Positions 4,420 through 56,603 of a stretch of DNA of 64,000 nucleotides are shown piece by piece (position 1 is the first letter of the stretch; the number at the start of each line of letters is the position of its first letter). Source of the DNA: Geoalkalibacter subterraneus (lineage in GTDB: Bacteria > Desulfobacterota > Desulfuromonadia > Desulfuromonadales > Geoalkalibacteraceae); contig NZ_CP010311.1 in assembly GCF_000827125.1 (NCBI RefSeq), forward strand, positions 1,860,001-1,924,000. Direction: 5' to 3'. The notes beneath the pieces were generated by a model, which saw only the letters and a list, made by a program, of their open reading frames with translations, was not told the DNA's origin and ran no database searches. A program made the position numbers and the translations under genes.

Positions 4420-6635
4420 TTCTGCGCAGCCTTGAACTCCGCCATTTCGGAAAATTCAGCGAGAAAAGTGTCGATTTCCGGCGTGGCCTCAACCTGGTGA
4501 TCGGCCCCAACGAAGCCGGTAAATCGACCCTCATCGAAGCCATCCCCGCAGCCCTGTTCGGAATGCGCGACAAGGAGCGTTTCCGTCCGTGGGGCAAGCA
4601 GGGCTCGCCCGGAGTCGCTCTCTCTCTCGAAGGCCGCAGCCACACGGTGCGGATCGAACGCGACCTGACCAGCGACCGTGTCGTGCTGGCCGAGCGTGAC
4701 GACCTCTACCACAACCTCTACCGATTCGAAGGGAAGGCCTCGCCACAGGGACGCTCCTCCGAGCGGGAGGAATACCTGGAACAGCTCAGCCGCCTGTTCG
4801 GCATCGCCGACGAGGATATCTTCCGCGCCTCGCTCTTTTTCGGGCAGGGCAGTCTCGAAGTCAGCGGGCAGGGCGGCATGGCTGCAAAAATCAAGACCCT
4901 GCTGTCGGGATTTGTCGAGGTGGACTACGACAAGGTTCTGCAGTCGCTTCAGGAGGATTACTTCTCCCTCACGCGGGAGAACCCCTGGGGACGCGACAAG
5001 AACCGCGACCGCGAACTTGAGGAGATCCGCCAGCGGCAGCAGGAATTGCAGGAGAAGTGGACCCGCGAGCAGGACGACGTGGAAAAGCTCGAAGCAATGC
5101 GCGCCGAGATCGCCGAACTTAAAGACGGGATCGATGCAGGGCGCAGCGATTATGAAAAAGGCGAGCGCTACCTTTCCTGGGTGCGGCAGCAGCATGACCT
5201 GGAGGAGAAAGCCGAAAGGCTGCGCAAGGACCTTGCCCGCTTCGAGCAGCAGCACGACAAGGTCAGTGACCTGCTGGAAAAGCGCGACAACATCGAAAAG
5301 GAATTCGCCGCTGTCGGCCTGCCCCGCCAGATCCCTGAAAAGCTGCCGCGCCTGCTGGAAGAAAGCGAGGAGGTTCGCCAGGAACTGGTCCGGGTTCAGT
5401 CGGAGACGGTTGCTCTGCGCGACAGGCTGGTACGCATGCCTGCGCCCAGGTGGAAATGGCGTGCCGGCGCAACTGCAGGCCTGCTGGGGGCTGTTGTAGG
5501 CGGTTATTTCTATCTTCCCGAATGGTTTCCGCCCATTGCGACAATTGCCCTGGTTGGCGGAGTCTGCATCTGGGCGCCTTTCCTGTCCAACCTCCTGCGC
5601 TTCCGCTCTGCAATGAGCAACCTGAAAGGGCAGGGGAAAATCCTGGAGCAAAGCCGGGTTGAGGCCCAGGAGCGTTTGGCGGAAATCGACGGGCAGTTCG
5701 AGGCGATGGGGATAAGGTCATCAGCGGTCGAACGGGTCAAGATGCAGCGCAACCTGGTGCGCCATCGAGAGCTGATCGATACCCTGCGCGAAGTGGAAAG
5801 CGCTCTCGGGGTGCTTGATACGCCGGATGCCCTGCAGGAAGAAAAACAGAGCGCCGAGCAGGAACTGGCCGAGGTGGAGGAGAGCCTTGAGAAGGAACGC
5901 CCCAAATACGGCCAGTCGCTGATGGCGCGCGAAGATCTGCCGGAAGCCGAAAAGAAACTGCGTGAACTCGGCGAAGAGCTGCAGCAGAAGGAGAAGCGCC
6001 TGCTGGAGCTGACCCGCAGCGAAGCCGCCATGCAGGGTGCCCTTGCCGACTTGGAGCATCTTCAGGAAGAACTTGAGCAGTTGCGGGAACGGGAGAAGAC
6101 GCTGACCTTTCGTGCGCAGTCGTTGAAGCTCGGGTTCGATCTGCTCGATGAGGCCGTGACCGAGTTCCGCCAGTCCTATCTGCAGAATTTTGCCGCCGAT
6201 ATCGGTCATTATCTTTCCAAGACCACGGCGGGCCGTTATGCCGAAGCGCGTCTTGATGACGACTTCAACCTCTTCATCAAAACCCGCTCCGGCCAGTGGC
6301 AGCCGGTGGAGTCGTTCAGCCGCGGCACGGCCGACGCGGTCTATTTTTCCGTGCGGCTGGCTCTGACCCGGCATCTGTCGCGCGGGCGCAATCTGCCGTT
6401 TCTCCTCGACGATCCGCTGGTCAACCTAGATGCCACACGGCTTTCCGAAGCGTTCGATACCCTGGAAAAGATCAGTGCCGAGCATCAGGTGATCCTGCTC
6501 TCTCACGACGAACGGCTGCTCAAGCGTGCAGCCCGGGATCGCTGGCATGTGGTGACGCTGGATAAGATCAAAGCCGCCCAGGTGAATGAATCACCTGAGA
6601 AGAAAGAGGAACTGCAGCAGCTGTTTCTGCTGTGA
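4416..6635 (+). CDS. SbcC/YhaN-like AAA ATPase with central membrane hairpin
   Basis: A 739-residue SMC-like ATPase. Walker A is GPNEAGKST (residues about 31-39); the C-terminal half carries the signature SFSRGTADAVYFSVRLAL and Walker B LPFLLDDPLVNLD. Long coiled coils fill about residues 190-340 and 400-590. Between them, at about 346-395, lie two hydrophobic stretches (ATAGLLGAVVGGYFYL and ATIALVGGVCIWAPFL) where a zinc hook would sit in SbcC/Rad50. No CxxC hook is visible. This is the layout of YhaN-type partners of YhaO nucleases, and it suggests membrane tethering through the coiled-coil apex. Smaller than SbcC (about 1050 residues). Confidence 0.85.
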   Translation: MILRSLELRHFGKFSEKSVDFRRGLNLVIGPNEAGKSTLIEAIPAALFGMRDKERFRPWGKQGSPGVALSLEGRSHTVRIERDLTSDRVVLAERDDLYHNLYRFEGKASPQGRSSEREEYLEQLSRLFGIADEDIFRASLFFGQGSLEVSGQGGMAAKIKTLLSGFVEVDYDKVLQSLQEDYFSLTRENPWGRDKNRDRELEEIRQRQQELQEKWTREQDDVEKLEAMRAEIAELKDGIDAGRSDYEKGERYLSWVRQQHDLEEKAERLRKDLARFEQQHDKVSDLLEKRDNIEKEFAAVGLPRQIPEKLPRLLEESEEVRQELVRVQSETVALRDRLVRMPAPRWKWRAGATAGLLGAVVGGYFYLPEWFPPIATIALVGGVCIWAPFLSNLLRFRSAMSNLKGQGKILEQSRVEAQERLAEIDGQFEAMGIRSSAVERVKMQRNLVRHRELIDTLREVESALGVLDTPDALQEEKQSAEQELAEVEESLEKERPKYGQSLMAREDLPEAEKKLRELGEELQQKEKRLLELTRSEAAMQGALADLEHLQEELEQLREREKTLTFRAQSLKLGFDLLDEAVTEFRQSYLQNFAADIGHYLSKTTAGRYAEARLDDDFNLFIKTRSGQWQPVESFSRGTADAVYFSVRLALTRHLSRGRNLPFLLDDPLVNLDATRLSEAFDTLEKISAEHQVILLSHDERLLKRAARDRWHVVTLDKIKAAQVNESPEKKEELQQLFLL

Positions 6636-44832: not shown

Positions 44833-46686
44833 ATGACTTTTGATCAGATGCTGATTATTGCCGTGCTGCTGTTGACCATGGCGGTTTTCATCCGAGGGCA
44901 CAGACGCCATGATCTTGTCGCCATGGGCGCATTGCTCGCGTGCGTTGTTTTTGGTCTGGTTCCAGGTGAAGAGGCTTTTTCAGGTTTCGGACATCCGGCG
45001 GTGATTACTGTCGCCTGTGTGCTGGTGCTGGGTCATGGACTGCAGATCACTGGTGCCGTCGATGAAATGACAAGACGGGTGCTGCCCGCCTCGGCGGGAC
45101 CAACCGTAAGCCTCTTGGCCCTCTGTTCCTTAGTGGCGGGTCTTTCGGGGATTATGAACAATGTCGGTGCCATGGCACTGCTGATGCCCGTCGCTATACA
45201 GATGGCTGAAAAGCAGAAACTCCCACCTGGGAAAGTTCTCATGCCGCTTGCGTTCTGCTCCATCCTGGGTGGCATGACCACCATGATCGGCACCCCGCCG
45301 AACCTGATTGTTGCTGGGTTTCGCGCGGAGGCAGGTCCCGGTGGTTTCGGTCTGTTTGATTACACCCCTGTGGGGCTGTCTGTGGCCGTGGTGGGAATCT
45401 TGTTCATTGCCCTGGCGGGGCGGCGCCTGGTGCCGGACCGGCAGCAGTCCGATCTGGACCGCTTCGATATGGGGAAGTATCTGAGCGAAATCAGGGTTGA
45501 TGAAGACAGCAAGGTTATCGGCAAGAGGTTGCGCGATGTTGAAAATATGCTTGAAGGTGCCGATGCTCAGATCGTGGGTTTGGTTCGTTACGATCTTCGA
45601 GTCTCTGCACCAAATCCCTGGCATCTGCTGCGCGAGGGAGACATCCTGACGATTGAAGCCGATCCTGAAGCTCTTACTTCGGCATTGAGCGAGTTGAACC
45701 TGAAGCTTGAAGAGGATGTTTCGCCCGACGAAGGCGAGGAAGAAGAGGGTAGAGATAAATCTTCCGAGCGTTTAGGGAACGGAGGTAAGGACAAAAAGGA
45801 AGAGAAGGAAAAAGAAAAATCTTCGACCGAAGAAATTTTTATTCAAGAGATGGTTGTAAGACCTGGCGCTCAGCTGATCGGCCGAACAGCCAGTGATATT
45901 GAGTTACGCTCCCGTTACGGCATTAACCTGCTTGCCATTTCACGTCAGGGGCGCCGCTCCATTAAACGTCTCCGGTCTACCGTGATTCAACCGGGTGACG
46001 TGCTCTTAATGCGTGGCATGCCCCAGGCCCTGACCGGCTTCGGCAATACGTACGGCTGTCTGCCTCTGGCTACGCGCGACATTCGGGTCCCGAAAAAGGG
46101 TCAGTCTATTCTTGCGGCCGGCGTAATGGCGGCAGCCATACTCGCAACCGCGCTGGGGATACTGCCTGTGGCCATATCTTTTGCCGGGGCTGTTCTTGCA
46201 TTCATCGTTCTACACATCGTGCCGCTGCGGTCGCTTTATAGCGCTATTGACTGGTCTGTCATCGTTCTACTTGGTGCCATGCTGCCGGTCGCGCACGCCA
46301 TGGATTCCACCGGCACAGCGGATCTCATTGCTAGTTTTTTTATTGACAACGTTGCCCAGGGCAATGCAGTCATCGGTCTGACAGTGATCCTGATCGTCAC
46401 CATGGTCCTGACGGATTTCATGAACAACGCCGCCACTGCCGCATTGATGTGCCCTCTGGCTCTGAGCACGGCTGCGCAGCTTCAGGTCAACCCCGACAGC
46501 TTTCTCATGGCAGTCGCCGTCGGCGCATCCTGCGCTTTTCTGACCCCTATCGGCCATCAGAACAACACACTGATTCTCGGGCCGGGTGGGTTTCGTTTCG
46601 GCGACTACTGGCCTCTGGGTCTGCCGACAGAAGTGCTTGTGGTCCTCGTCAGTGTTCCCATGCTGCTGTGGGTCTGGCCGCTGTAA
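44833..46686 (+). CDS. SLC13-family permease with TrkA-C domains
   Basis: A 617-residue carrier. Membrane half: MNNVGAMALLMPVAIQMAEK, LGGMTTMIGTPPNLIVAGF, and at the C-terminus MNNAATAALMCPLALSTAAQ. The middle holds two TrkA_C-type domains joined by a long charged linker (DEGEEEEGRDKSSE, then KKEEKEKEKSS). SLC13-type carriers move sulfate, dicarboxylates or similar anions. It is divergent from the TonB operon. Confidence 0.85.
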   Translation: MTFDQMLIIAVLLLTMAVFIRGHRRHDLVAMGALLACVVFGLVPGEEAFSGFGHPAVITVACVLVLGHGLQITGAVDEMTRRVLPASAGPTVSLLALCSLVAGLSGIMNNVGAMALLMPVAIQMAEKQKLPPGKVLMPLAFCSILGGMTTMIGTPPNLIVAGFRAEAGPGGFGLFDYTPVGLSVAVVGILFIALAGRRLVPDRQQSDLDRFDMGKYLSEIRVDEDSKVIGKRLRDVENMLEGADAQIVGLVRYDLRVSAPNPWHLLREGDILTIEADPEALTSALSELNLKLEEDVSPDEGEEEEGRDKSSERLGNGGKDKKEEKEKEKSSTEEIFIQEMVVRPGAQLIGRTASDIELRSRYGINLLAISRQGRRSIKRLRSTVIQPGDVLLMRGMPQALTGFGNTYGCLPLATRDIRVPKKGQSILAAGVMAAAILATALGILPVAISFAGAVLAFIVLHIVPLRSLYSAIDWSVIVLLGAMLPVAHAMDSTGTADLIASFFIDNVAQGNAVIGLTVILIVTMVLTDFMNNAATAALMCPLALSTAAQLQVNPDSFLMAVAVGASCAFLTPIGHQNNTLILGPGGFRFGDYWPLGLPTEVLVVLVSVPMLLWVWPL

Positions 46687-51130: not shown

Positions 51131-51878
51131 CTAATTGCATCCAGCAGCCGAGCGCCTGCTCCTTGTATTATCGGTCATTCGCAGGTAGTCGAAGACGGCG
51201 CGGGGGTTCATGGCGAGCATCCTCATTTTCTGCGCAACGCTGCCGACGCTTTTTGATTTAATCAGACCGACCGCGAAGCGTCGGAGCCGGGTGATGTTTT
51301 CCGGCCCATGGCCGGTGCGTATCCGGCTTCGGTCTTCGTCGTAATTCCAGTCAATGATGTAGTGGCAGCTGTTTTCTATGCACCAGTGGTTGCGATTAGT
51401 CTTGAGGATGCGCTGGGCGTCGGCCTGCTGCGGTGTGTGGCTGGTGATTCCGTAAACGGTTTCGGTTGAGACTTTCCCGCTCTTTTTGTTGACCCTTTCG
51501 CGTTCGACCATGAAAGCCTGACCGACGTGAGGAAAGTCGAGATAGTCGTTGAGCTCGGCGGTGACCCAGATCCTCCGCGTCTCGATCCGGCCATGGTCGG
51601 AGTCGACGGTGACAGCGTGAGGTTCTTGGCGGCCATGAAAATACAGGGTGAGGTCTTCGAGAAGCCGGGGCTGATTGCCTTTGACGGTGAAATGGTAATG
51701 GGCCTGCCTGTCTTCGACCAGGTAGCGGGCCAATCGGCGTTGCGTCAATAGGGCGTCGGCGCTGATGGTCTTGCCTTCGATGCTGATCGCCTCGAGCAAG
51801 GGGATGGCCATTTTGATTTCGTTCGTTTGCTTGACCTCGTCGCTGCCATCGTCTATCGGCAGGAGGCCGACTTTTTTT
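51131..51878 (-). CDS. ISAs1 transposase, C-terminal part (-1 frame)
   Basis: Continues the transposase in the -1 frame after the slippery site at 51878-51871. KVGLLPIDDG, EAISIEGKTISADALLTQRR (second catalytic Asp) and HWCIENSCHYIIDWNYDEDR (catalytic Glu) belong to the ISAs1 DDE domain. It has no plausible start of its own in the family's sequence. Confidence 0.85.
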
Positions 51879-52920
51879 GGGTGTGGCAGGTTTTGGTCTC
51901 GTGGCCGATCGCGCTCATGATATGCGTCTTGCGGCCTTGCTCGTCGGTGGCGTTGCACATGGTCTTGCCGTCAATGGCGAGGCTTTCATCCGCGCCTGCG
52001 TAAGCCTCGTTCCAACGTTGAAAGCTGCGGTCGAGATGATCCGGATCGACCCTGATGAGGATATCGCGGATGATGTATTCGCTCGGGACAAGGTACTGCC
52101 CTTGTTTTTTACGGCATCCGAAGCGCTCGCGCGCCTTGGGGCCAAGACTTTTGGCCCAATCGGAAATCGCCTTGTACCCGCGCATCCCGCAAAGCGTCGC
52201 CCCGGCGGCAATGGCCAAAACGGTGGACAGCCGGTGGCGTTTCCCTGCGGCGCGGCGCGGGTCGGGGATGTCGGTGAAAAACTCTGGCAAGGATCGCATT
52301 TGATTGGCTGTCAACAACATTTTCACGTCTCCTGGACAATAGGGCGCCCCAAGCAGGGGGCGGGACAAGAGCGATTGGGCATTGGACTGCAGCGCACGAA
52401 CAAACACCATCTTCGGGGACTGTGCGAGGTTGCTATAACCTTGACGGGTTCGGCGAAATCCCTTGGTCTGACCCAGGCATAGCCAATTGGCCGCCTTGTA
52501 AACCGTGCCTTGATAGCGCTGCGGATCGACAAAGGTCTCCATCAGCACAAGCGGATGGCCAAAGCGCTCCAGCCAGTCGCGCTGGATTCTTTGTTCGCAC
52601 AGCGCCAAGACGCGCGAGCCCAGATTGGGCAAATGCCACTGCGGCAGGATCAGAAAACGGCTATTGTTGGCAACCAGCTTCAAGCGGTCATATTGGCGCC
52701 GATGATCCCAGCCAATCCACTGGTCGCGAACGGCGCACTTCAAGGCCGCAGCGGAAAAGCTCAGCAAAGCGACCCACTGCTGGCGCAATATGGCAACGTA
52801 CCAGAGGGTTTCGCCGATCTTGGGCAGATCTCCCAGATAATGATGCGCTTGCATTGTCTCCCGATATCGGTCCTCCTCGAGGGCTGAAACGGGTCGTACA
52901 TGGATTTCTTTCAGATTCAC
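51853..52920 (-). CDS. DUF4338 domain plus ISAs1 transposase N-terminal part
   Basis: A 355-residue frame. Residues 1-190 are a DUF4338 domain (YRETMQAHHYLGDLPKIGET, RQYDRLKLVANNSRFLI). The rest is the ISAs1 N-terminal half (DPRRAAGKRHRLSTVLAIAA, AIDGKTM with the first catalytic Asp). It ends shortly after CAA AAA AAG at 51878-51871; a -1 slip there continues into the C-terminal part, restoring the DDE triad. DUF4338 is the family of DruA in the Druantia phage-defence system. Confidence 0.85.
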   Translation of the reverse strand: MNLKEIHVRPVSALEEDRYRETMQAHHYLGDLPKIGETLWYVAILRQQWVALLSFSAAALKCAVRDQWIGWDHRRQYDRLKLVANNSRFLILPQWHLPNLGSRVLALCEQRIQRDWLERFGHPLVLMETFVDPQRYQGTVYKAANWLCLGQTKGFRRTRQGYSNLAQSPKMVFVRALQSNAQSLLSRPLLGAPYCPGDVKMLLTANQMRSLPEFFTDIPDPRRAAGKRHRLSTVLAIAAGATLCGMRGYKAISDWAKSLGPKARERFGCRKKQGQYLVPSEYIIRDILIRVDPDHLDRSFQRWNEAYAGADESLAIDGKTMCNATDEQGRKTHIMSAIGHETKTCHTQKKSASCR

Positions 52921-53145: not shown

Positions 53146-54084
53146 ATGAAAAATATCGTCACGCTGACTATGAATCCTGCGATCGACAAGAGTTCAAGTG
53201 TTGCGCGCGTGGTTGCTGAGCGAAAGCTCTACTGCAATCCGCCCCGTTTCGAACCGGGTGGTGGCGGGGTGAATGTCTGCCGCGCCATAAAAAAGCTCGG
53301 TGGGGATTCTGAACTCCTTTATCCGGCGGGGGGATTGACGGGGCAGAGACTGCAGGGACTTCTCGACAGAGAAGATCTTTTCCACCGTCCGCTGCCGATA
53401 GCGGGCGCGGTTCGCGAGAGTCTCGTGGTTCTGGAGGAAGAGACCGGGCTGCAGTATCGATTCGGGATGCCGGGGCCTCATTTGCAAAAGGACGAATGGC
53501 GGCAGTTTCTGGCGGAAATTGAAAGTATTGAGCCGTCTCCTGACTACCTGGTGGCCAGCGGCAGCCTGCCGCCGGGCGTTCCCGTCGATTTTTACGCTCA
53601 GTTGGCGCGCGCCGGCAAAAAGTGCGGCGCGAAAACAATTGTCGATGTCGCGGGAAAGGCTCTTGAGGAGGCTCTCAAGGAGGGCGTATTTCTGATCAAG
53701 CCCAATGTCCGCGAATTCAGGGATCTGGTCGGCGATCATGTCACCGAAGAGGCTCAGATCAAGGAACAGGCTCAGAATCTGGTCAAAGAGGGCCGCTGCG
53801 AAGTTGTGGTGATCTCTCTCGGGGCGGCTGGAGCTTTAGTCGCTGCTGAATCGTTCACGGAACATATCCTGCCGCCCACCGTGCCCATTATCAGCAAGGT
53901 CGGTGCCGGCGACAGCATGGTGGGCGGCATCGTTTTGAGCCTGGCCAGGGGAAAACAACTCCGGGAAGCAGTCATTTTCGGGATCGCCTCCGGAACCGCT
54001 GCCGTCATGACTCCTGGAACGGAGCTGTGTCGCAGGGAAGATGCCGAGCGTTTGTTTAAGGCCATGATGAAAGAGACCGTTTGA
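53146..54084 (+). CDS. pfkB: PfkB-family phosphofructokinase
   Basis: A 312-residue PfkB sugar kinase: TMNPAIDKSSSVARVVAERK, FEPGGGGVNVCRAIKKLGG, ASGSLPPGVPVDFYAQLARA, and the catalytic GAGDSMVGGIVLSLARGK. This matches 6-phosphofructokinase II. ATG 53146 follows GAGGG. The gene formerly joined the ferredoxin-type gene now at 55329. Confidence 0.9.
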   Translation: MKNIVTLTMNPAIDKSSSVARVVAERKLYCNPPRFEPGGGGVNVCRAIKKLGGDSELLYPAGGLTGQRLQGLLDREDLFHRPLPIAGAVRESLVVLEEETGLQYRFGMPGPHLQKDEWRQFLAEIESIEPSPDYLVASGSLPPGVPVDFYAQLARAGKKCGAKTIVDVAGKALEEALKEGVFLIKPNVREFRDLVGDHVTEEAQIKEQAQNLVKEGRCEVVVISLGAAGALVAAESFTEHILPPTVPIISKVGAGDSMVGGIVLSLARGKQLREAVIFGIASGTAAVMTPGTELCRREDAERLFKAMMKETV

Positions 54085-54165
54085 CGGAGCGCCTGAACCG
54101 CATTCCCCGGGGCGCTCCTCCCCCCGAGCTGTTGATCCGCATTTCTTCCATGCGGATTTTGTAAT
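54080..54165 (+). pseudogene. Degenerate copy of the 5' end of the ferredoxin-type gene
   Basis: After the pfkB stop, TTTGACGGAGCGCCTGAACC (54080 onward) is identical to 55364 onward for 22 bp, and the next 60 bp still align. In frame it reads LTERLNRIPRGAPPPELLIR, close to the start of the 55329 gene. It is a relic of duplication. Confidence 0.75.
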
Positions 54166-54397
54166 TTTTTCCGTCAAAGTGTTGTTTTTCAACAACAGTA
54201 CCGTCGGAAAATTTTACACTTCAAAACATATGACAACCAGCAAAGTCCAGAAAATAATAACTAAAACAATAGCTTATGTTTGAGGCACTAAATGTGCATA
54301 CTCCGTGTGCAATTCCATTTTTGTTTTGCAGTCTTTGTGTGTGTGTCATTTGTCGGTGTTTTTATTTAACGGTTTTTTAGTAGAAATGAGGCTGAAA
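54166..54397. other. AT-rich non-coding stretch before the PEP-CTERM gene
   Basis: No gene is supported. Composition shifts to AT-rich here and stays so to about 55310. No promoter hexamer pair is clear enough to report. Confidence 0.4.
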
Positions 54398-54970
54398 ATG
54401 AGTAAAAATTTTTATGGACTGATTTTTGTTTCATTCTGTGTGTTTTTTTTGTCGAGCCAAGTACAAGCTTTAACTGTCGACTTTATTGAAATTTTTGATA
54501 CTAACAATAGTGGAGTTCTTGAATTTGGAGACAATAACACTAATAAAGATAATTATCTAGAATCACAATATTTATCTTCTGTTGTTAGAAAATTTAATCT
54601 TTCAAATTTTCCTGAACAAAATTCAGTTTTTGATATTTTTATTAAATATGAAGGTGACGATAGTCGGGCAGATAATTATTTTGTATTAAATGGACATGAG
54701 TTTAGTCCTCTGCCCAATGGCAATGGTAGTAAGACATACTCAGGAGAGAATTCTTTACTGAATTATGGAGAGAATGAGATAGTTTTCAATATTGGATATG
54801 TCAATTCATATTGGGGTTTTGACGATTTTTCAATTTCTGAGTTTAATTTAGAGTATGCTGCAGGGCAACAAGCACCCTCTGCCGTCCCGGAGCCATCTTC
54901 TTTTCTTATTTTTGGAATAGGAAGCATTGCTTTGTTTTTGTTTTCAGGAAGAAAAAGAAAGAATAAATAG
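54398..54970 (+). CDS. PEP-CTERM exported protein
   Basis: A 190-residue protein. A signal peptide (NFYGLIFVSFCVFFLSSQVQ-A) leads to a low-complexity beta-rich body. The C-terminus is VPEPSSFLIFGIGSIALFLF followed by GRKRKNK, the PEP-CTERM sorting tail (VPEP, hydrophobic helix, basic end) recognised by exosortase. No exosortase is in the window. The gene is much AT-richer than its neighbours, so recent acquisition is likely. GAGG lies 6 bp before ATG 54398. Confidence 0.85.
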   Translation: MSKNFYGLIFVSFCVFFLSSQVQALTVDFIEIFDTNNSGVLEFGDNNTNKDNYLESQYLSSVVRKFNLSNFPEQNSVFDIFIKYEGDDSRADNYFVLNGHEFSPLPNGNGSKTYSGENSLLNYGENEIVFNIGYVNSYWGFDDFSISEFNLEYAAGQQAPSAVPEPSSFLIFGIGSIALFLFSGRKRKNK

Positions 54971-55313
54971 TTAAAAATACAGAAAATCTGATGCCATGAA
55001 AAGGCTCAGGATGCTGCAGAAAGTCTTTGTGGGTTCTTGAGTCTTTTCTTATTTTTGATAAAGATTATTCAAATATATCTGTGTCCCCGAAATGGTACAC
55101 TTGCAATTTGAATCTACCCTGTAAGAAAGGGAAGTTTTAATGTCTCCTGAAACATCAGATTCTCCCTGCTCCATGATTGCAGTTTTCATGGATGTAGCTT
55201 TGATTCTTGCAGCCATTTCAAGCCTGGTCGGTTTCGGACCCCAGACGTGAGAGATGATGAGAGGCTTTTGTGTAACGAACGTCAAATTTAGCGTACCCCT
55301 TGGCTGACCTGGC
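54971..55313. other. Non-coding remainder of the AT-rich insert
   Basis: No plus-strand gene is supported. A minus-strand frame (55351-55049) is long enough to be coding but resembles nothing I recognise. A GTGTCCCCGAAATGG segment near 55081 recalls sequence around REP-associated transposases, without further support. Confidence 0.35.
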
Positions 55314-55328
55314 GAAAGAGACCGTTTA

Positions 55329-56603
55329 ATGGCCCACCTGACCGTCCGCAACTCCTACCACCATTTGACGGAGCGCCTGAACCGCTTCCCGCAGGGGGCC
55401 CCTCCTTCAGAGATGCTGACCCGCATTCTCTCCATGCTCTTCAGCCCGCAGGAAGCCGAGCTTGTTTCCGATCTGCCGCTGCGACCGTTTACATCTGCAA
55501 AAGCCGCCAAGGCCTGGGGAAAAACCGAGAGTGAGGCGCAGAACATTCTGCAGGAACTTTCCTCCCGTGGGCTGCTGGTCGACATGGAGCAGAAAGGGCG
55601 GATGCATTATGTTCTGCCGCCGCCCATGGCCGGCTTCTTTGAATTCTCCATGATGCGGGTGCGTGCGGATCTGGATCAGAAACTGCTGGCCGAACTGTTC
55701 GAGCAGTACATAACGGTTGAGGACGATTTCATCAAAGCCCTTTTCGTCGATGGTGAAACGCAAATGGGCCGCGTTCTGGTGAGCGAGGACGTTCTCGGCT
55801 CGGAGAATGCTTTGCATGTTCTTGACTATGAGCGGGCAACGCACATTATCGAGTCGGCCACCGATATCGGCATCGGGCTCTGTTACTGCCGGCACAAACG
55901 CGCCCATCAGGGACGTGCCTGCAATGCAGAGATGGATATCTGCATGACCTTCAACACCGTGGCGTCTTCGCTGATCCGCCACGGGCATGTCCGTCGCGTC
56001 GAAACGAGTGAATGCAAGGAGCTTCTACACAAAGTCTGGGAGCAGAACCTGGCCCAGTTCGCTGAAAATGTCCAGAACGGGGTCAGTTTCATCTGCAACT
56101 GCTGCCCCTGCTGCTGCGAGGCGATGATCGCTCACCAGCGTTTTGGTCACCAGCATCCAATCCATACCAGCAATTACATTGCCGTGGTGGCCGATAAGTG
56201 TTCCGGCTGCGGGCGCTGCCTGCCGGCCTGCCCGGCGCACGTGATCAGCCTCGAGACAGCAGATGCCGATGGTGTTGGTCGGCGTCAGGCCGTGATCGAT
56301 GAGGAACTCTGCCTGGGATGCGGCGTCTGTGTGCGGGTGTGCCGCCTGCAGGCCCTGCACATGAAGCCGCGACCAAAGCGCGTCATTACCCCGGTCAATT
56401 CCGTTCACAAAACCGTCAAGATGGCCATTGAACGGGGGACTCTCGAGCACCTTGTGTTTGACAACCAGGTGTTGTGGAGTCATCGAGCGTTGGCGGCTCT
56501 TCTGGGTGCTGTGCTTCGCATGCCTCCGGTCAAGCGCAGCCTGGCTTCGAGTCAACTCAGCTCAAGATATCTGGAGCAGTTATGCAGAAAATTTGATTTT
56601 TAA
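55329..56603 (+). CDS. Ferredoxin-type 4Fe-4S protein with winged-helix N-terminus
   Basis: A 424-residue protein. The N-terminal 80 residues look like a winged helix. Two ferredoxin clusters are plain: CSGCGRCLPACPAHV and CLGCGVCVRVCRLQ. Further Cys groups (LCYCRHKRAHQGRAC and CNCCPCCCEAM) precede them. It is a probable redox regulator or electron-transfer partner. ATG 55329 lies inside the 14-bp repeat-flanked junction, where TTTAATGG gives both a former pfkB stop and this start. Confidence 0.85.
   Translation: MAHLTVRNSYHHLTERLNRFPQGAPPSEMLTRILSMLFSPQEAELVSDLPLRPFTSAKAAKAWGKTESEAQNILQELSSRGLLVDMEQKGRMHYVLPPPMAGFFEFSMMRVRADLDQKLLAELFEQYITVEDDFIKALFVDGETQMGRVLVSEDVLGSENALHVLDYERATHIIESATDIGIGLCYCRHKRAHQGRACNAEMDICMTFNTVASSLIRHGHVRRVETSECKELLHKVWEQNLAQFAENVQNGVSFICNCCPCCCEAMIAHQRFGHQHPIHTSNYIAVVADKCSGCGRCLPACPAHVISLETADADGVGRRQAVIDEELCLGCGVCVRVCRLQALHMKPRPKRVITPVNSVHKTVKMAIERGTLEHLVFDNQVLWSHRALAALLGAVLRMPPVKRSLASSQLSSRYLEQLCRKFDF

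What the first reader, a model, noticed from the sequence alone, without database searches (positions are those of the whole stretch)
54069..55385. pfkB-ferredoxin junction duplicated around an AT-rich PEP-CTERM insert
GAAAGAGACCGTTT occurs at the pfkB end (54069-54082) and just before the ferredoxin-type start (55314-55327), where TTTAATGG gives a pfkB stop and the next start together. A degenerate copy of the ferredoxin 5' end follows pfkB. The ancestral genes therefore overlapped, and an AT-rich segment with a PEP-CTERM gene entered with duplication of the junction.
Basis: seen in the sequence. Interest (0 to 1): 0.55.

Follow-up and report, generated by a model that had tools for sequence, protein, structure and literature searches.

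The report
Surface-protein gene wedged between duplicated ends
In a metal-reducing bacterium, a foreign-looking, AT-rich gene for a predicted exosortase-sorted (PEP-CTERM) protein sits between two genes that probably once overlapped, with the old overlap present twice, one copy whole and one decayed into what looks like a transcription stop signal; it is a neat record of a gene insertion rather than a new kind of system.

Summary
The window matches Geoalkalibacter subterraneus Red1 by size. The pfkB/ferredoxin-type ('fer') junction occurs twice, at 54069-54153 and 55314-55437; copy 1 lacks 39 bp including the fer start codon and has 15 mismatches in 85 aligned bases. In copy 2 a pfkB-frame stop overlaps the fer start. 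Between them lies about 1.16 kb: a transcription unit of the known PEP-CTERM/exosortase regulon (activator box, sigma-54 site, 31% GC gene) plus a 25-bp relic of an IS30-family end. A pattern written from the genome's four PEP-CTERM promoters finds only one further place; exosortase, PrsK and PrsR are present. Copy 1 is a candidate pfkB terminator, untested. Insertion with junction duplication and tandem duplication followed by internal replacement cannot be told apart. Known parts, unusual fossil; modest interest.

The parts
53146..54084 (+). pfkB-family hexose kinase; last codons AAA GAG ACC GTT then TGA
   Evidence: PF00294; TIGR03168 (1-PFK subfamily) 285.6 bits over cut-off 216.4, but below the cut-offs of the equivalog models for 6-phosphofructokinase II (280.2 of 353) and 1-phosphofructokinase (247.5 of 292)
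54069..54153 (+). Junction copy 1: pfkB 3' end fused by a 39-bp deletion to fer codons 13-36, degenerate
54086..54118 (+). Hairpin GGAGCGCC ... GGCGCTCC inside copy 1 (-18.5 kcal/mol; -9.9 at the same place in copy 2)
54134..54172 (+). Candidate intrinsic terminator of pfkB: 9-bp stem (54134-54158), 7-nt loop, T-rich tail; 5' arm is fer-derived
   Evidence: -11.2 kcal/mol; -2.8 at the same place in copy 2
54160..54175 (-). Possible second, inverted activator box (12 of 16 to the box used)
54203..54218 (+). PEP-CTERM regulon activator box ('motif 1' of PMC1569441), GTCGGAAAATTTTACA
54284..54297 (+). Sigma-54 -24(GG)/-12(GC) promoter, GG-N10-GC, 65 bp after the box and about 100 bp before the start codon
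   Evidence: (17 of 19; 0.016 expected in the region)
54398..54970 (+). PEP-CTERM gene, 190 aa, hydrophobic N-terminus (by eye) and C-terminal PEP-CTERM domain (residues 162-186); 31% GC
55094..55118 (+). Solo relic of an IS30-family terminal inverted repeat; the element side would lie to the left
55119..55313 (.). Segment of unknown origin (46.7% GC) between the IS30 relic and junction copy 2
   Evidence: no relative found
55314..55437 (+). Junction copy 2, complete: GAAAGAGACCGTTTAATGG..., pfkB-frame stop overlapping fer ATG
55329..56603 (+). fer: 424-aa protein with a ferredoxin-type 4Fe-4S dicluster region (about residues 284-347)
   Evidence: PF00037 (2 stretches), PF12838; relatives

Best explanation
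pfkB and fer most likely once formed a two-gene unit with overlapping stop and start (TAATG). A low-GC segment carrying a self-contained PEP-CTERM transcription unit, and with it the end of an IS30-type element, came to lie between them in an event that left the junction in two copies, so that pfkB kept its 3' end (copy 1) and fer kept its upstream 14 bases and start (copy 2). Copy 1 lost 39 bp including the fer start codon, decayed as coding sequence, and now forms a hairpin that may terminate the pfkB transcript. The PEP-CTERM gene would be transcribed on its own from a sigma-54 promoter by PrsR when PrsK signals, and its product exported and processed by exosortase (XrtA type). Shown here: the two copies, the deletion, the regulon sites as sequence, the exosortase/PrsK/PrsR genes, the IS30 end. 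Inferred: the ancestral overlap, the order of events, terminator function, foreign origin, and regulation and sorting of this protein.
For: Repeat and deletion. At codon 29 position 1 copy 1 has the base of 17 of 20 relatives (20 of the fetched fer loci, picked by me) and copy 2 a base that none has, so copy 1 is not simply a late copy of today's gene. The five closest pfkB relatives align to residue 308 of 312 and have 0 to 3 further codons before the stop; here there are 4. Activator box and sigma-54 site before this gene, with 65 bp from box to -24 GG against a published mean of 62.8. A pattern written from the four PEP-CTERM promoters of the genome (so these four match by construction) finds only one further place in 3.7 Mb and none read backwards. 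Exosortase 258.5 bits; PrsK TIGR02916 567.5 and PrsR TIGR02915 663 bits, both over cut-off. GC 31% here against 48-53% in the other three PEP-CTERM genes. Terminator hairpin -11.2 kcal/mol against -2.8 at the same place in copy 2.
Against: No genome with pfkB next to fer and no insert was found: 0 of 12 other pfkB-bearing genomes of the order, and no genome of the same genus was among those searched. Duplications of this length are, as far as I recall, not made by known transposition, and the insert has no terminal inverted repeats. All 15 mismatches lie in the last 52 of 85 aligned bases (chance 2.5e-4 if spread evenly, a test made after seeing the data), which one old duplication does not explain by itself. 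At other sites copy 1 is the derived one (codon 20 position 1 and codon 34 position 2: copy 2 has the base of 20 of 20 relatives). The terminator scan has no excess of sites (5 found, 5.0 expected), copy 1 as a whole folds little better than shuffles (z -1.23, 18 of 200 as good), 110 of 4921 sampled 28-mers fold as well as the terminator stem, and one relative's fer reaches -9.1 at the same place.
Confidence: 0.55

Rival explanations
1. Tandem duplication of pfkB-fer followed by internal loss and replacement: the middle (fer copy 1 after codon 36 and pfkB copy 2 except its last 14 bases) was deleted and the PEP-CTERM/IS30 segment came in, perhaps by IS-adjacent deletion.
For: Needs only common events; explains that the two fer fragments differ substantially (15 of 85) and that copy 1 keeps an older state at some sites. 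One relative, G050 (260 contigs, 84% complete), holds more than one pfkB piece.
Against: No trace of further pfkB or fer sequence in the flanking segments of the insert that I tested: alignments of the right segment with pfkB and fer, of the left segment with fer, and of the 300 bases before copy 2 with the pfkB end do not stand out from shuffles; BLAST of the whole insert against the rest of the window gives at best E 0.017. Needs more steps.
Confidence: 0.35
2. Incoming DNA from a related strain, already carrying PEP-CTERM unit - junction - fer, joined the chromosome by homology within fer on one side and by illegitimate joining after fer codon 36 on the other.
For: Would explain divergence between the copies without great age; GC of the insert is far from the genome's.
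Against: No such donor found: in 135 other genomes of the order (up to 3 candidates scored per genome) the insert's DNA matched only at the IS30 end. The first 33 aligned bases being identical is not predicted.
Confidence: 0.15
3. The 14-mer and the fer-like stretch behind pfkB are chance.
For: A 14-mer alone is weak: 6 of 100 shuffles of the window reach two matches with up to 2 mismatches.
Against: Alignment score 112.5 against a maximum of 53.6 in 200 shuffles.
Confidence: 0.01

Closest known systems
PEP-CTERM/EpsH (exosortase) system with PrsK/PrsR and sigma-54 box, Haft et al. 2006 (PMC1569441)
   Same: PEP-CTERM domain; single-gene unit with long upstream region; box ending in TTTACA, then a sigma-54 site about 63 bp on; exosortase, PrsK and PrsR in the genome.
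   Different: This member is much lower in GC than the genome's other three and lies between two copies of a gene junction.
RpoN-dependent pepA of Aquincola tertiaricarbonis (PMC9850573)
   Same: PEP-CTERM gene with -24/-12 promoter and predicted enhancer.
   Different: Transcript start and RpoN dependence shown by experiment there; here inferred from sequence only.
IS30-family insertion sequences (1,120-bp element, two identical copies in genome G051, loci L164/L165)
   Same: 25-bp end, 23 of 25 positions.
   Different: Only one end remains here; no second end in the genome within 3 mismatches and no interior similarity.

Membership tests
PEP-CTERM protein of the exosortase system | C-terminal PEP-CTERM domain (PEP motif, TM stretch, basic end) | tested here: met
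   PF07589 26.7 bits over 20.7; TIGR02595 20.3 over 16
PEP-CTERM protein of the exosortase system | Exosortase in the same genome | tested here: met
   PF09721 258.5 bits; XrtA model 231.4 over 208, while the XrtD model scores higher (241) but below its cut-off of 400
PEP-CTERM protein of the exosortase system | Activator box plus sigma-54 site upstream, PrsK/PrsR in genome | tested here: met
PEP-CTERM protein of the exosortase system | Export and cleavage of the product by the exosortase | not testable with these tools
   experiment needed
IS30-family insertion sequence | Terminal inverted repeat | tested here: met
   one end only, 55094-55118
IS30-family insertion sequence | DDE transposase and second end | tested here: not met
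   no second end in the genome within 3 mismatches; no interior similarity to the complete element. It is a relic, not an element.
Transposon-type insertion of the whole insert | Terminal inverted repeats at the insert's ends | tested here: not met
Intrinsic terminator | G+C-containing stem followed by a T run | tested here: met
   9 pairs (4 G-C), loop 7
Intrinsic terminator | Stops transcription | not testable with these tools
   RNA data needed

The most novel reading that the evidence does not exclude
PEP-CTERM genes with their box and sigma-54 promoter travel as self-contained cassettes that can enter at overlapping gene junctions by duplicating the overlap, and the coding remnant left behind is reworked, perhaps by hairpin-templated changes, into the terminator that insulates the upstream gene.
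Probability: 0.12. Interest if true: 0.55.

Novelty: new member of a known kind. Interest (0 to 1): 0.3.

Why it matters
It is a readable fossil of how a single-gene regulon member can be placed between two overlapping genes without breaking either, and of coding sequence that may have become a terminator. It also suggests a small regulon (five sites by one strict pattern) for the exosortase system in this metal-reducing bacterium. None of this needs a new kind of system.

Tried and rejected
Rejected: chance. Rejected: whole insert as a classical transposon (no terminal inverted repeats; no other copy in the genome at E up to 0.001). Tried without result: donor of the insert in 135 other genomes of the order (up to 3 candidates scored per genome: only 26-28 base matches to the IS30 end, in three genomes), in plasmids as DNA (only 43-base matches at 88.6% identity in 12 Escherichia plasmids, E 6e-4, taken as chance), the minus-strand ORF 55049-55351 and the PEP-CTERM protein against plasmids (none). 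Protein search over 276 other genomes of the class: 14 matched, best E 3.7e-6, mostly over the C-terminal half. Direct repeats around the other three PEP-CTERM genes: nothing comparable; around one of them (L168) two 21-nt pairs at 81% and 76% identity lie on either side, short enough for chance. Rfam: one sub-threshold match (MIR8562, 23.9 bits against a gathering score of 211). Structure of the PEP-CTERM protein from one sequence: mean pLDDT 49, not used. Gene order near pfkB and near fer in G003: only pfkB itself is shared with the window in the one stretch, only fer and a homologue of the gene at 44833-46683 in the other. Literature: one search for PEP-CTERM with insertion sequence, low GC and horizontal (1 paper listed) and one on terminators and insertions (8 of 23 listed) gave nothing that looked to the point; listings only.

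Full report
Where it is. The window is bases 1,860,001-1,924,000 of the first contig of a two-contig genome of 3,717,645 bases; that contig is 3,475,523 bases. These are the sizes published for Geoalkalibacter subterraneus Red1 (PMC4357744, whole text read); G003, with a contig of 1,394,064 bases, matches G. ferrihydriticus in the same paper.

The observation. They are the starts of two copies of a longer junction: 54069-54153 and 55314-55437. Copy 2 is complete: the pfkB frame ends in TAA, overlapping the ATG of the ferredoxin-type gene. Copy 1 lacks 39 bp between ACCGTTT and ACCATTT, so that pfkB now ends in TGA and the fer start codon is gone. Over the 85 aligned bases there are 15 mismatches, all in the last 52; with mismatches spread evenly the chance of a clean first 33 is 2.5e-4, a test made after seeing the data. 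I have no firm reason for this unevenness; selection on the pfkB end, conversion between the copies, or reworking of the 3' part are possible.

Age and direction. Copy 1 is a fer fragment, since its translation matches the conserved fer N-terminus. At codon 29 copy 1 has the base that 17 of 20 relatives have and copy 2 a base that none has; at codon 20 position 1 and codon 34 position 2 it is copy 1 that departs from 20 of 20. So both copies have changed since they parted, and the split is not very recent, unless copy 1 came from another strain. Changes in copy 1 show no clear sign of coding constraint (my count, codons 13-36: 5 synonymous, 6 changed-residue codons).

What lies between. From left to right: an activator box, a sigma-54 site, the PEP-CTERM gene, a 25-bp IS30-type end, and 195 bases of unknown origin. 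The box and promoter are those described by Haft et al. 2006 (PMC1569441; passages and section 7 read): a motif ending in TTTACA, a spacer averaging 62.8, then a -24/-12 site. Here the distance from box to GG is 65, and in the other three PEP-CTERM genes 64, 62 and 50; the box of one of these three is weak (11 of 16 to the box used; 59 of 127,970 window positions do as well). The genome has four PEP-CTERM matches over the cut-off and one below it. A pattern of box plus promoter, written after seeing the four, finds them and one further place, and none when read backwards; the fifth place is about 90 bp ahead of a GAF/HisKA/HD-domain gene next to prsR. Exosortase, PrsK and PrsR lie near each other. 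RpoN dependence of a PEP-CTERM gene was shown in Aquincola (PMC9850573, passages read). The gene is therefore an ordinary member of a known regulon by sequence.

Foreign look. Its GC is 31% (third positions 21.5%), against 51, 53 and 48% for the other three PEP-CTERM genes and 57.5% for its neighbours. No close relative of the protein was found: 14 of 276 other genomes of the class match at E up to 0.001, none better than 3.7e-6. The 25-bp end agrees at 23 of 25 positions with the end of a complete 1,120-bp IS30-family element, present in two identical copies in G051; in this genome it occurs once, without partner.

Relatives. pfkB at E up to 1e-40 occurs in 12 of 135 other genomes of the order. 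Among all 190 loci fetched, 122 hold fer and 27 hold pfkB (tblastn E up to 1e-30); the 8 that hold both are all from this genome. Each of the 12 genomes has a pfkB copy with at least 1,482 bases held downstream and no fer there (upstream less is held in some, down to 6 bases); two further partial copies in G050 run into contig ends (2 and 154 bases). Some fer loci are cut by contig ends. So the pfkB-fer pairing is confined, as far as seen, to this lineage, and there is no empty site to compare. The ancestral overlap stays an inference from the repeat.

The terminator. Copy 1 contains two hairpins that copy 2 lacks in this strength: -18.5 against -9.9 and -11.2 against -2.8 kcal/mol, the second followed by a T-rich tail. 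Against it: the scan has no excess over shuffles (5 against 5.0), the fold of the whole stretch has z -1.23, 110 of 4921 window 28-mers are as stable, and one relative, L147, also folds to -9.1 at the same fer position. I hold terminator function as likely but untested.

Mechanism. If the two genes overlapped, any insertion that spared both had to leave the overlap in two copies; survivorship may thus explain the duplication whatever made it (inference). Single-step insertion with junction duplication and tandem duplication with later replacement cannot be told apart here; uptake of a related strain's DNA is a third way. The scores given for these overlap and are not exclusive shares.

Verdict. 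Observation confirmed; interpretation partly supported; parts of known kinds; modest interest.

Noticed in passing
window 51131-52920 (-): ISAs1-family transposase split over two frames (ORFs 51131-51958 and 51853-52920), the upstream part fused to a DruA-like domain (PF14236), just upstream of pfkB.
   Followed up: no
G000:C1:1782950-1783040 (-); L182 about 4651-4741: Fifth box-plus-sigma-54 site, ahead of a 748-aa GAF/HisKA/HD-domain protein beside prsR: a possible non-PEP-CTERM member of the PrsR regulon.
   Followed up: partly
L155 348-1247 (-): A tyrosine recombinase, best matches XerA and integron integrase but below their cut-offs, lies next to another PEP-CTERM gene of the genome.
   Followed up: no
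G050 (L115, L184, L185): Three pfkB pieces in one relative, one of them with stops, two at or near contig ends; duplication, mobility or assembly effects.
   Followed up: no
L168 4126-4203: Perfect tandem pair of a 39-nt unit near a PEP-CTERM locus.
   Followed up: no
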